The translations under genes and the position numbers were made by a program. Under the pieces are notes generated by a model. The model had not been told where the DNA came from. It saw nothing but the letters and a program-made list of their open reading frames with translations, and searched no databases. Of a stretch of 64,000 nt of DNA, positions 23,701 to 33,100 are shown in pieces; positions within the stretch are counted from its first letter, which is position 1, and the number at the start of each line of letters is the position of its first letter. Source of the DNA: Epinephelus fuscoguttatus (Eukaryota; Chordata; Actinopteri; Perciformes; Serranidae); the NCBI RefSeq assembly GCF_011397635.1, contig NC_064772.1:13593035-13657034 (forward strand), read 5' to 3'.

Positions 23701-25721
23701 CCCCATCAAGCTCCAACTCATCAATGCCCTCACCCACCATCAAAGGTAGCACGACACAAAATGCTGCCATTACTAAGTGTTTGCTGATGTGAAACAATCC
23801 AGATGTAGAGATATTAGAACAAACCTTTCCCCTGTGTGTTCACTGATGGTGTTTCTCCTTCTGTACCAGCCAAATCACCAAGCCAGGCCAACGGTCATGC
23901 TCCCAAGCCCCAACCAGGACCTGTGTCTCAGGTATAAAACTCTTCATTTTTCATGATCTTTTTTTTTTTTGTTATTATTGTTTAGTCTATAAAATGTTAG
24001 AAAATAGTACAAAATGCCCATCACATTTCCCAAATCCCACAGTGATGCTTTTGTTTTTCGTCAAGTAATCAGGTAGAATTCAAATATATTAAATTGACAA
24101 TGATAAAACACTGAACTGTAACGTATTAGCATACTATTCTATGACTTTATATTTAAAACATTTTATGGCATACTTTACTAGGACTTTTATTACATTTCTA
24201 TGGGATACTATACTTTTTTATACTGTTTATGACATATTATACTATGACCATTTTATTACTTTTTTTTTTTTTTTTTTTACTATACTTGTACTACAGTACC
24301 ATACCATTTTTATGGTGTGCTATAGTATGCCTTTTTAACATATTATACTATGACACTTTGATGTCATACCATGCTGTAATTTTTTTAATAACATTTTATT
24401 GGCATACTACACTATTACTTTTTTAAATAACATTTTTATGAAATTCTAAAGACTTTTTTTGGTGTACTATACTATGATTTTTTTTTAACACTTTCTTTTT
24501 GACGTACTTCTTTTATTGCCTACTATAATAGAACATTTTATGTCATATTTTGCTATAACTTTTTAAAAAAAAATTATAAGCATACTGAACTATATTTTTT
24601 ATGACATACTATGCCATAATGGGGTTTTTTTTATAACATTTTAATGGCATATTATACTATGAATTTTTTATGACTTTTTATGGCACACTATATATGATTT
24701 TTTTTATTACAATACTAATAACTAATGACATATTATACTACAATTTTTTAAATACATTTTTCATAAGCATACTATACTATGAGTTTTCATTACATTTTTA
24801 TAGCATATTAAACAATGACATTTTTATGACTTTCTTTCTGAGATACTTTCTTTCACTATAATTATATAGCTATAACTATATTAGGACATTTTTATGGCAT
24901 ACTATACTATGACATGTATAAATATTTTTTTATGAAATATTACTCTATTCTCTTTATGACATTTTAATGGCATACTGTACTATGACTTTTTTTAGTTAAA
25001 AAAACAAAAAGAACTAATAATGTTCCCGCCTCTTGTACAAGTTGTATCATTATGTCATATTCTGTCTTTTCAGGACTTTGGAAATGTTCCACCTCCACCC
25101 CCACCACCACCATTGGCTGAGATCCTTCCTCCACCACCTCCAGACCCAGTCCTCCCTCCACCACCTCCTTTGGCTGCCAAGAGTCCCTCAAGACCTTCCC
25201 CTCCCCAGCGACACATGCCAACCAACTTCCCGCCACCTCCTCCTGCAATGGACAACCTCCCTCCTCCACCGCCACCCCCACCCAACGATGATGCCTTAGA
25301 GGCCCCGCCAGACTTCCTTCCACCACCTCCTCCGGCCGCTGGCTTTGGTTCGCTGCCACCACCTCCGCCATTGAACTCGCTACCACCACCGCCTCCCCCA
25401 GCGAGTTTCGGAGGTGTGGATCAGTCTCTGCCTCCTCCACCACCAGATCCAGGGTTTTTACCTCCACCTCCACCTCAGCCAGTGTTCACAGGGGGTGGAG
25501 TACCCCCTCCGCCTCCACCACCACCTCCTCCTCCTCCTCCTCCTCAACCTGCTGCTGCCCCAAGACCAGTGCGGCCTTCTGGCTCAGTGAAGAAGATGCC
25601 TCCTGCTCCGCCAAAGAGAACTACACCATCACTGCATGGAGGAGGAGGAGGTGGAGGAAGTGGTGAAGACTTCATGTCAGAACTGATGCTGGCCATGAAC
25701 AAGAAGCGTGGAAATAAATAG
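2625..25721 (+). CDS. apbb1ip: apbb1ip (RIAM), Rap1-GTP-interacting adaptor; 3' ten coding exons, 5'-partial
   Basis: The gene encodes an MRL-family adaptor that links active Rap1 to talin/integrin and Ena/VASP at the plasma membrane. Coding exons are 2625-2702, 6437-6596, 15138-15259, 17252-17326, 17444-17587, 18062-18172, 23430-23528, 23622-23745, 23870-23931 and 25074-25721. They join to 541 codons including the TAG stop, all in phase and all with AG/GT borders. Order of parts: coil (KADKIKLALEKLKEAKVKK), RA domain (LVVKVMMNDGSS to FKNPQ), linker, PH domain (FCGTSIIVPDLEGVMHLKED to WVTGIRIAK), Ser/Pro linker, then a proline-rich tail with FPPPPP. The residues match recalled human RIAM closely. 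The sister gene raph1 (lamellipodin) is the main alternative, but RIAM-like length, the C-terminal KKRGNK and linkage to pdss1 and abi1 favour apbb1ip. About 145 N-terminal residues lie outside the window. Confidence 0.95.
2703..6436. other. apbb1ip intron
   Basis: I find no exon here. It contains two diverged copies of one local segment (about 5288-5510 and 5868-6075, see the repeat entry) and otherwise AT-rich sequence with no recognisable RNA gene. Confidence 0.7.
5288..6075. repeat. two diverged direct copies of an about 210-bp segment
   Basis: Copy 1 (about 5288-5510) and copy 2 (about 5868-6075) share, in the same order, AGTTTCCARCAGGGCTG, GTTTAACCCTGACRAAACATAG, an AAAATGATRG block, a CAGGGTTTAA-like block, a TTCAATTCATTTCAA-like block and GCTTTATTGGCAT. 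The blocks near the end resemble the 3' tail of a fish LINE in reverse. The pair is either a local tandem duplication or two insertions of one element. Confidence 0.65.
6437..6596 (+). CDS. apbb1ip: apbb1ip exon: N-terminal part of RA domain
   Basis: The exon is 160 bases, phase 0 to 1, between TTCTAACAG and GTGAGT. It encodes LVVKVMMNDGSSKTLMVDER followed by a segment ending FEKTHCDCNVDWSLCETNPE. This is the ubiquitin-fold Ras-association domain that binds Rap1-GTP. The THCDCNVDW block is diagnostic of RIAM and lamellipodin. Confidence 0.95.
6962..7150 (-). mobile_element. LINE (L2-like) reverse-transcriptase remnant
   Basis: Read on the minus strand the sequence gives ILMHAFISRRLDYCEAPFSG LPK, the conserved C-terminal reverse-transcriptase block of fish L2-type LINEs (HAFISxRLDYCNxLLxGLP). 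It is short and degraded, an old 5'-truncated insertion in the large apbb1ip intron. Confidence 0.7.
7697..7909. repeat. 213-bp TTAA MITE
   Basis: The element is bounded by TTAA on both sides. Its ends are AAGGAATACTTCA and TGAAATATTCCTT (inverted). It is internally AT-rich and non-coding. The same end type is seen in the 3' UTR-region elements at about 25985-26450 and 54206-55085. Confidence 0.75.
10440..10665 (+). mobile_element. SINE-like fragment (fish Mermaid-type, tentative)
   Basis: It carries CTCCGGCTTCCTCCCACAGT, TTAATTGGTGACTCTAAATT, GAATGGTTGTCTGTCTCTAT and TGTCAGCTGGGATAGGCT in order. This is the same body as the full-length copy at 29654-30005, but it is truncated at both ends. 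Confidence 0.75.
11640..11706 (+). repeat. purine-only G/A tract
   Basis: From about 11655 to 11706 the + strand is almost purely purine, built from GGA and GGGGA triplets and quadruplets. Such a mirror-like homopurine tract can form triplex DNA, and its G-runs could support a quadruplex in the apbb1ip transcript. No other feature is attached to it. Confidence 0.6.
12535..12720 (+). mobile_element. LINE 3'-end remnant
   Basis: The sequence AGATGTGGAACTCCCTGGCA followed by GATGATCTGAGGCAG and AAAACTTATCTTAAAAAAGC is the extreme C-terminal coding and 3' end of fish L2/Maui-type LINEs (WNSLPxxLR, then KTYLFxxAF). Only the last part is left. Confidence 0.6.
14105..14255 (+). mobile_element. SINE-like fragment (Mermaid-type, tentative)
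   Basis: It shares CTCCGGCTTCCTCCCACAGT, CCAAAGACATGCAGGTTAAT, CTGCCTCTCGCCCAGTGTCA and GCTGGGATAGGCTCC with the full copy at 29654-30005. It has an internal deletion that removes the middle part of the body. Confidence 0.75.
15138..15259 (+). CDS. apbb1ip: apbb1ip exon: C-terminal part of RA domain
   Basis: The exon is 122 bases and completes the split Glu codon left by the previous exon. It encodes RTFEDHENLVEPLLAWTRDS and ends FKNPQ. The FEDHE-N-V/L and W-TRD-EN blocks match the RA domain of RIAM. The 8.5-kb intron before it is the largest in this part of the gene. Confidence 0.95.
16186..16964. repeat. TTAA MITE, 779 bp, in apbb1ip intron
   Basis: The ends are TTAAAGGGACAGTTCACCCC and its inverse (GGGGTGAACTGTCCCTTTAA), with TTAA at both borders. 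The inverted arms extend inward through CTTACCTGTAGTGCTATTTAT and GAGATGTCTGCCTTCTC. A paralogous copy lies at 48735-49774 inside pdss1, and that copy carries an additional insertion that is absent here (around 16718-16730). Confidence 0.85.
17252..17326 (+). CDS. apbb1ip: apbb1ip exon: charged RA-PH linker
   Basis: The exon has 25 codons in phase 0: NFYLWKKDKRALKEIKDKDK then ELLIQ. It is Lys-rich and helical, at the place of the linker between RA and PH domains in the human protein, and it is the most diverged of the domain-core exons. Confidence 0.9.
17444..17587 (+). CDS. apbb1ip: apbb1ip exon: start of PH domain
   Basis: The exon has 48 codons in phase 0. It opens ENFCGTSIIVPDLEGVMHLK and ends ASGIYYVPKGKTK. 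The EDGKKSWK basic patch and the following W/R/F-L-RASGIYY strand are the phosphoinositide-binding beta1-beta3 part of the PH domain. Confidence 0.95.
18062..18172 (+). CDS. apbb1ip: apbb1ip exon: central PH domain
   Basis: The exon has 37 codons in phase 0, beginning SSRDLVCFVQFDNVNVYYG and ending KAPTDFCFILK. It matches human TSRDLACFIQFENVNIYYG and the APTDYCFVLK strand. Confidence 0.95.
18400..19420. repeat. candidate dispersed repeat with GGCGCTATAACAAC motifs
   Basis: The motif GGGGCGCTATAACAAC occurs near 18636, a GGGGGCGCTAGAGAG variant near 19091, and GGTGGCGCTATAACAAC near 19208. Around them are repeated clauses such as GAAACTTTGCAC, AAACTCGGT and AAACTTGGTAGATATG. The GC content and phrasing differ from the flanking intron. 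A 172-codon ORF at 18340-18858 runs into it but resembles no protein. I cannot name the element. Confidence 0.5.
20325..20378. repeat. (AC)27 microsatellite
   Basis: The tract is an uninterrupted AC dinucleotide repeat of 54 bases. It explains the VCVCVC and THTHTH open frames on either strand. Confidence 0.97.
20648..20962. repeat. probable hAT-type MITE
   Basis: The ends TAGGGATGTGCGCAATTAGA and GTCGGCAGGAACATCCCT are roughly inverse. The interior is rich in GACTAGTCGACTAGTC and TTAAACGTC, as in other fish TAGGGATG/TAGGGCTG elements. A clean target duplication was not resolved. Confidence 0.5.
23430..23528 (+). CDS. apbb1ip: apbb1ip exon: C-terminal PH helix
   Basis: The exon has 33 codons in phase 0: HPQIQKESQYIKYLCCDDAW then TMNLWVTGIRIAK. 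The invariant Trp of the PH C-terminal helix is present (LWVTGIRIAK). It is almost identical to the human protein. Confidence 0.95.
23622..23931 (+). CDS. apbb1ip: apbb1ip two exons: post-PH Ser/Pro linker
   Basis: Two exons lie here, 23622-23745 (YGVSLHENYKTAEKKAAVSS, then WTNRSTPSSSNSS) and 23870-23931 (KSPSQANGHAPKPQPGPVSQ), joined by a split Ala codon. They carry the conserved YG-LYxNY start after the PH domain, then low-complexity Ser/Pro sequence expected to be disordered. The segment is shorter than the human equivalent. Confidence 0.9.
24125..24990 (+). repeat. diverged 38-bp AT-rich satellite array in last intron of apbb1ip
   Basis: About 20-25 degenerate units are present, recognised by CATACTATACTATGAC followed by T-runs and TTTATGGCATA. 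The unit is the reverse complement, in genomic orientation, of the large array at 27350-32749. Units have drifted and vary in length, so this is the older or less homogenised array. It ends about 85 bases before the terminal exon of apbb1ip. Confidence 0.85.
25074..25721 (+). CDS. apbb1ip: apbb1ip terminal exon: proline-rich Ena/VASP- and profilin-binding tail
   Basis: The exon has 215 codons plus TAG. It carries many poly-Pro runs of five to fourteen residues, separated by short acidic or hydrophobic spacers. NFPPPPPAM fits an EVH1-binding FPPPP site, and several DFLPPPPP and GFLPPPPP sites resemble it. The tail ends in Gly-rich sequence, then EDFMSELMLAMNKKRGNK, matching the conserved human C-terminus (DFMSDLMKALQKKRGN). 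The complementary strand reads as long Gly-rich ORFs, which are shadows. Confidence 0.95.
   Translation, partial: DFGNVPPPPPPPPLAEILPPPPPDPVLPPPPPLAAKSPSRPSPPQRHMPTNFPPPPPAMDNLPPPPPPPPNDDALEAPPDFLPPPPPAAGFGSLPPPPPLNSLPPPPPPASFGGVDQSLPPPPPDPGFLPPPPPQPVFTGGGVPPPPPPPPPPPPPPQPAAAPRPVRPSGSVKKMPPAPPKRTTPSLHGGGGGGGSGEDFMSELMLAMNKKRGNK

Positions 25722-33100: not shown

What the first reader, a model, noticed from the sequence alone, without database searches (positions are those of the whole stretch)
24125..32749. Same satellite in the last introns of two convergent genes, as opposite-facing arrays
A 38-bp AT-rich unit forms a 0.9-kb array in the final intron of apbb1ip (24125-24990) and a 5.4-kb array in the final intron of selenoo2 (27350-32749). 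The arrays face each other genomically and flank only the two terminal exons and 3' UTRs. Because the genes converge, each transcript reads the array in the same sense. An inversion between the arrays would exchange the terminal exons of the two genes. I know of no described locus with this mirror arrangement.
Basis: partly seen in the sequence, partly recalled or inferred. Interest (0 to 1): 0.85.

Follow-up and report, generated by a model that had tools for sequence, protein, structure and literature searches.

The report
Common satellite in two neighbouring introns
Two neighbouring fish genes each carry, in their last intron, a tandem-repeat array of the same widespread satellite family pointing in opposite directions; the arrangement is real, but such arrays and such opposite-facing neighbours occur at other places in this genome, so it is most likely ordinary.

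Summary
A degenerate array (24130-24994) fills most of the last intron of apbb1ip. A 5.4-kb array with a 38-bp unit (27383-32752, broken by a SINE-like element) fills nearly all of the last intron of a SelO gene. They are one repeat family on opposite strands (score 221 against 22 on the other strand; 60 shuffles reach at most 39), and both transcripts read the T-rich strand.

The claim that the arrangement is exceptional fails. The family is dispersed and related to Lca_38, a published 38-bp tandem repeat of Lates calcarifer. A strict 26-bp core occurs 816 times (backward control 0). Both orientations lie close together at 6 of 34 other loci in one best-hit list (two with tiny minority pieces) and at 2 of 21 loci in a position-ordered list (recounts). 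Each array has better matches elsewhere than its neighbour. They share no exact stretch over 19 bp, so recombination between them looks unlikely.

Best reading: two independently seeded members of a dispersed satellite family, tolerated in introns and homogenised separately. Polymorphism could not be tested.

The parts
24130..24994 (-). small degenerate array of the satellite (A-rich unit on the - strand, T-rich in apbb1ip sense), inside the apbb1ip last intron
23932..25073 (+). last intron of apbb1ip (phase 0)
   Evidence: splice sites and reading frame; gene identity
25074..25721 (+). last coding exon of apbb1ip (polyproline tail, ends NKKRGNK-stop)
   Evidence: no Pfam match, assigned by position and in-frame splicing
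27091..27213 (-). last coding exon of the SelO gene (ends KVSCSS-stop)
   Evidence: PDB match to the C-terminus of SelO
27214..32830 (-). last coding intron of the SelO gene (phase 0)
   Evidence: gene identity
27383..32752 (+). large 38-bp array (A-rich unit on the + strand, T-rich in SelO sense)
29655..30005 (+). SINE-like element inserted in the large array, flanked by about 16-18 bp of duplicated array sequence; similar copies in other fetched loci
   Evidence: the name SINE is recalled, ARAGORN found no tRNA gene in the window
31469..32739 (+). higher-order 163-bp periodicity in the end of the large array next to the SelO donor site
32831..32959 (-). penultimate coding exon of the SelO gene (open frame shown; its 5' splice boundary was not fixed)

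Best explanation
Both arrays are independent members of one AT-rich tandem-repeat family that is dispersed through this fish genome, in introns and outside them. Each copy seeded its site separately (how is not shown), then grew and homogenised locally by slippage, unequal crossing-over or conversion (inferred). The opposite orientation is one of two possible outcomes and is seen at other loci too. No function is demonstrated here; the arrays are probably tolerated because they lie in introns and leave the splice sites free. On the T-rich sense strand they also carry almost no poly(A) signals.
For: Dispersal: 195 matches to the small array, only 39 of 782 candidates scored; 816 exact 26-bp cores, 473 forward and 343 reverse, backward control 0; family members on 22 of 26 contigs among the rows shown. 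Known relative: Lca_38 aligns to the large-array consensus with score 176, identity 0.85, against a maximum of 32 for 100 shuffled controls (probe sequence from PMC4833346, passages read). Separate descent: against the small array the two halves of the large array rank 9th and 13th of 19 array segments (173 and 155 bits; the best, on C17, 328). The large array's best match outside itself is on C21, 1.17 Mb away (79%), then C18, C10 and C17 (76%); the small array is not among the 100 rows. Base N in TATGNCAT: small array C in 8 of 12, large array G in 106 of 112. Local homogenisation: a 23-mer of the large array occurs 32 times in the genome, all 32 inside it. Opposite neighbours elsewhere: recounted. 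AATAAA in sense 0 and 0 (one ATTAAA in the small array), on the other strand 5 and 17.
Against: Comparison arrays were chosen as good hits to the small array, so the ranking is biased against the neighbour. Another array (C6) also has mostly G at the diagnostic base (87 of 123). Clusters of arrays within a few kb suggest local spread, so a common origin of the two followed by divergence is not excluded. Only a small share of candidates was scored. How copies reach new sites is unknown; arrays on C3 and C5 have the same non-satellite repeat nearby.
Confidence: 0.83

Rival explanations
1. The two arrays are the arms of one event: an inverted duplication of a single array, or a foldback-like element, that landed across the gene ends.
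For: Same family, opposite strands, 2.4 kb apart. A satellite with an inverted partial copy inside a transposon-like unit is known in Tribolium (PMC3411249, passages read).
Against: Each array has better matches elsewhere and the diagnostic base differs. The DNA between the arrays is the last coding exons and 3' ends of the two genes. The only flank match between the two arrays is the overlap of one and the same stretch of DNA between them.
Confidence: 0.07
2. Orientation in introns is selected: arrays persist where the T-rich strand is the sense strand, because the A-rich strand carries poly(A) signals. Convergent genes then give mirror pairs.
For: Both window arrays are T-rich in sense with 0 AATAAA, against 5 and 17 on the other strand. 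An array between two Glyco_transf_64 exons, one of which matches exostosin-1, is T-rich in sense too (L017).
Against: An array between two exons of an F-box/WD gene is A-rich in sense (L027, L028). The gene call: one exon matches first the Tako8 and Ika8 propellers and then, as first natural protein, FBXW8 (E 2e-17; that Tako8 and Ika8 are designed is recalled); the terminal exon matches FBXW8 only weakly (E 0.32, second after a scaffoldin at 0.23, but at the expected C-terminal residues). Only four genes could be read, too few for a test. Shuffles of the A-rich strand hold more AATAAA (mean 44.8) than the array itself (17).
Confidence: 0.08
3. The arrays cause recurrent inversion that exchanges the terminal exons of the two genes.
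For: Inverted geometry, and both last introns are phase 0, so chimaeras would be in frame.
Against: Longest exact shared stretch 19 bp; longest ungapped stretch at 95% identity 28 bp. Exons stand in normal order in this assembly.
Confidence: 0.02

Closest known systems
Lca_38, 38-bp tandem repeat of Asian seabass Lates calcarifer (PMC4833346)
   Same: Unit length and sequence: score 176, identity 0.85 to the large-array consensus, shuffled maximum 32; arrays on C3, C6 and C11 score higher per base than the large array.
   Different: Described there by FISH as pericentromeric (passages). Here arrays lie in introns and near genes, and the strongest periods of the sampled arrays range from 25 to about 60 bp and multiples. 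Its consensus file was not read; only the FISH probe sequence was used. The small array resembles Lca_38 only weakly (0.07 per base).
TCAST satellite-like elements of Tribolium castaneum (PMC3411249)
   Same: A satellite dispersed in euchromatin, 29 of 68 elements in introns, no shared flanking motif (passages).
   Different: Unrelated organism; short arrays up to tetramers, part of them inside a transposon-like unit; no sequence comparison was made.
Intronic minisatellites of fish genes, e.g. growth hormone introns of Sparus aurata (mentioned in PMC3045353)
   Same: Length-variable tandem repeats in introns of a fish gene (passages).
   Different: The GH unit sequence was not seen here; no claim of homology.

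Membership tests
Lca_38-like satellite family | unit sequence similar to Lca_38 beyond chance | tested here: met
   large-array consensus: score 176 against 100 shuffled controls, maximum 32. The small array joins through the shared unit; its direct match to Lca_38 is weak
Lca_38-like satellite family | about 38-bp period, head to tail | tested here: met
   large array: TRF period 38, 138 copies. Small array: autocorrelation peaks at 38 and 26, both weak
Lca_38-like satellite family | pericentromeric location | not testable with these tools
   no centromere map; this locus lies 13.6 Mb into a 39.6-Mb contig between ordinary genes
Foldback or inverted-duplication element | two arms that are each other's closest kin | tested here: not met
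   each array has better matches elsewhere, with the selection bias noted
Transposon-carried satellite | common sequence at array edges at different sites | tested here: inconclusive
   all-against-all blastn of the 1.5-kb flanks of 17 five-prime and 18 three-prime edges: no sequence shared by all or most; but C3 and C5 share a repeat (328 bp, 85%) that is not satellite-like (unit scores 14 and 20), and C3/C17, C3/C11, C9/C23 and C3/C9 share shorter pieces

The most novel reading that the evidence does not exclude
The opposed arrays let the two terminal exons flip occasionally, giving in-frame exchange of the apbb1ip polyproline tail and the SelO C-terminus between alleles.
Probability: 0.02. 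Interest if true: 0.8.

Novelty: new member of a known kind. Interest (0 to 1): 0.15.

Why it matters
The locus shows how a dispersed fish satellite can fill last introns (76% and 96% of their length) without removing splice sites, and how a mirror pair can look special while the genome-wide background is out of sight. A genome-wide test of array orientation against gene sense would be a worthwhile small study.

Tried and rejected
Tried without result: exact 23-mer in viral contigs, 0 hits. Rfam over 23000-33500 at E up to 5: six matches, all below their families' gathering scores, none a SECIS. ARAGORN on the window: no tRNA gene. Searching the own genome with the last and penultimate SelO exons found only the exons themselves, and tblastn against pieces of the other SelO loci gave nothing convincing (best E 1.7). 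A PDB search with a putative first aquaporin exon (L033:6940-7242) found nothing, so the array near the aquaporin exon (L034) is not counted as intronic. Papers: text searches with stretches of the unit listed one paper that carries the repeat, PMC4833346; the other listed papers, judged by title and abstract start only, matched a 12-base stretch or the text lca38 in another sense. Searches on minisatellites, introns, teleosts and inversion and on dispersed satellites were seen as listings, with passages read. No search was made for the locus by gene name. Rejected: mirror pair by common descent, foldback element, inversion hot spot, fixed sense orientation (reasons under rivals).

Limits of the counts: one search shows the first 100 of 816 places, on C1, C2 and part of C3: 21 loci at a gap of up to 5 or 10 kb, 18 of them with two or more hits, 2 with both strands. 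One search gives 100 rows in 35 loci, one of them the window's own array; 6 of the 34 others have both strands, with 67 and 78 bp of minority strand at C15 and C8 and 516 to 2371 bp at C22, C6, C3 and C7. Of the ten neighbourhoods fetched with flanks (L017-L036, from the hits) 2 have both strands at length, C17 and C11. L037 was fetched because it was already seen to be mixed and is in no count of neighbourhoods; the same place is one of the six. The consensus rests on 37 of 73 anchor intervals; the others were outside 32-44 bases.

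Full report
What is there. The window is part of a fish chromosome (C21:13593035-13657034 of a 1.05-Gb, 26-contig assembly; that it is a fish is inferred from the genes and the repeat). Two convergent genes meet near 26-27 kb. On the + strand lies apbb1ip (PDB match to APBB1IP E 3.6e-23; RA domain). On the - strand lies a SelO gene: Pfam SelO at upstream exons, PDB matches of the penultimate exon (6k20 residues 408-442, E 0.00088) and of the last exon (6eac residues 453-488 of 488, E 1.9e-05). The splice sites of both last introns read through in frame and both introns are phase 0. 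The small array occupies 865 of 1142 bases of the apbb1ip last intron, the large one 5370 of 5617 bases of the SelO last intron, SINE-like element included.

Are they the same repeat, and opposed? Yes. The large-array consensus is TATAGTATGGCATAAAAAAGTCATAAAAATTGTCATAG (from 37 of 73 anchor intervals). The reverse complement of the small array scores 221 against it, with 632 of 828 aligned columns identical; the forward strand scores 22; 60 dinucleotide shuffles have mean 27 and maximum 39, 60 permuted units a maximum of 38, and the reversed unit scores 22. A scan of the window in 8-kb pieces finds no other array of this family at score 50 or more. In transcript sense both arrays are T-rich (T 0.47 and 0.46).

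Is it special? The family is spread over the genome: 22 of 26 contigs among the rows shown. The small array gives 195 matches, with 39 of 782 candidates scored. A strict 26-bp core gives 816 exact hits, 473 forward and 343 reverse, with 0 for the backward control. One variant of the core gives 97 hits on 13 contigs. Both orientations lie close together at 2 of the 21 loci in the 100 places shown, at 6 of the 34 other loci (two of the six with under 100 bp on the minority strand; recounts), and at 2 of the 10 neighbourhoods fetched with 8 to 10 kb of flank. At C3:14.94 Mb a - block abuts a + block directly (L037). At C17:17.75 Mb an array between two Glyco_transf_64 exons, one matching exostosin-1, stands opposite to an array of about 6 kb further downstream; beyond that lies the last exon of a Med30 gene on the other strand (L017, L018). 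The last exon of the first gene was not located, so the larger array may be inside or beyond that gene. This is a near parallel to the window: convergent genes, opposed arrays.

Are the two arrays a pair by descent? The evidence is against it but not final. In a blastn comparison with 19 array segments the halves of the large array rank 9th and 13th for the small one (173 and 155 bits, best 328); the comparison arrays had been chosen as good hits to the small array, which biases the ranking. The large array's best genome match outside itself is 1.17 Mb away on the same chromosome (79%), followed by other chromosomes at 76%; the small array is not in the list of 100 (38 of 1323 candidates scored). 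Nor is the large array among the rows shown for the small one, where the list is cut. The base at N in TATGNCAT is C in 8 of 12 units of the small array, G in 106 of 112 of the large one, and mostly T in 14 of 17 other segments; the C6 array is mostly G as well. A 23-mer of the large array occurs 32 times in the genome, always inside that array, as local homogenisation would give.

Could they drive inversion? The longest exact stretch shared is 19 bp and the longest ungapped stretch at 95% identity 28 bp. That homologous recombination needs much longer identity is recalled, not tested. The exons stand in their normal order. Polymorphism could not be tested.

Does sense matter? On the sense strand the arrays have no AATAAA and one ATTAAA; the opposite strands have 5 and 17 AATAAA, fewer in the large array than its shuffles have (mean 44.8). 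So the observed orientation happens to be nearly free of poly(A) signals. But an array between two exons of an F-box/WD gene is A-rich in sense. The gene is probably fbxw8: first natural match for one exon FBXW8 at E 2e-17, behind the Tako8 and Ika8 propellers; for the terminal exon FBXW8 only at E 0.32, second after a scaffoldin at 0.23, but at its C-terminal residues 563-599. Four genes are too few for a test.

How copies spread. No sequence is common to the flanks of all or most arrays (17 five-prime and 18 three-prime edges). Arrays on C3 and C5 do share a 328-bp repeat at 85% in their flanks, and a check shows that it is not satellite sequence (unit scores 14 and 20). It may be a bystander repeat or a trace of a carrier. 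The mechanism of dispersal stays open.

What it is. The unit is related to Lca_38, a 38-bp tandem repeat of Asian seabass mapped by FISH to pericentromeric regions (PMC4833346, passages read; comparison). Satellites dispersed into introns are known from Tribolium (PMC3411249, passages). The finding is a new member of a known kind. Confidence that the arrays are independent members of a dispersed family is 0.83.

Noticed in passing
window 27091-27213 (-): The SelO gene ends in KVSCSS-stop: cysteine where selenoprotein O has selenocysteine (the position is recalled), and Rfam shows no SECIS in 23000-33500 at E up to 5. PMC3316567 (passages) reported the SelO2 duplicate only in zebrafish; in this genome SelO exons match on three contigs, C4, C21 and C22.
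   Followed up: partly
window 35770-36927 (-): Tc1/mariner-type transposase in two open frames (HTH_Tnp_Tc3_2; DDE_3 below its cut-off) between exons of the SelO gene.
   Followed up: no
window 29655-30005: SINE-like element inside the large array, flanked by about 16-18 bp of the same array sequence, as a target-site duplication would be; similar copies in L018, L021, L023, L032, L033, L036 and elsewhere in the window.
   Followed up: partly
window 55941-56135 (-): SH3-domain exon, looks like an ABI-family gene (name recalled).
   Followed up: no
L031:6056-8995 (+): Long open frames that look like a reverse-transcriptase element between arrays on C11 (identity recalled, not searched).
   Followed up: no
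C5:23556146-23558044: Exact core copies at spacings near multiples of 26 bp, all on one strand: a shorter-period subfamily.
   Followed up: no
L019 and L023 (flanks of arrays on C3 and C5): A non-satellite repeat of about 328 bp, 85% alike, lies in the flanks of arrays at both places; nature unknown.
   Followed up: partly
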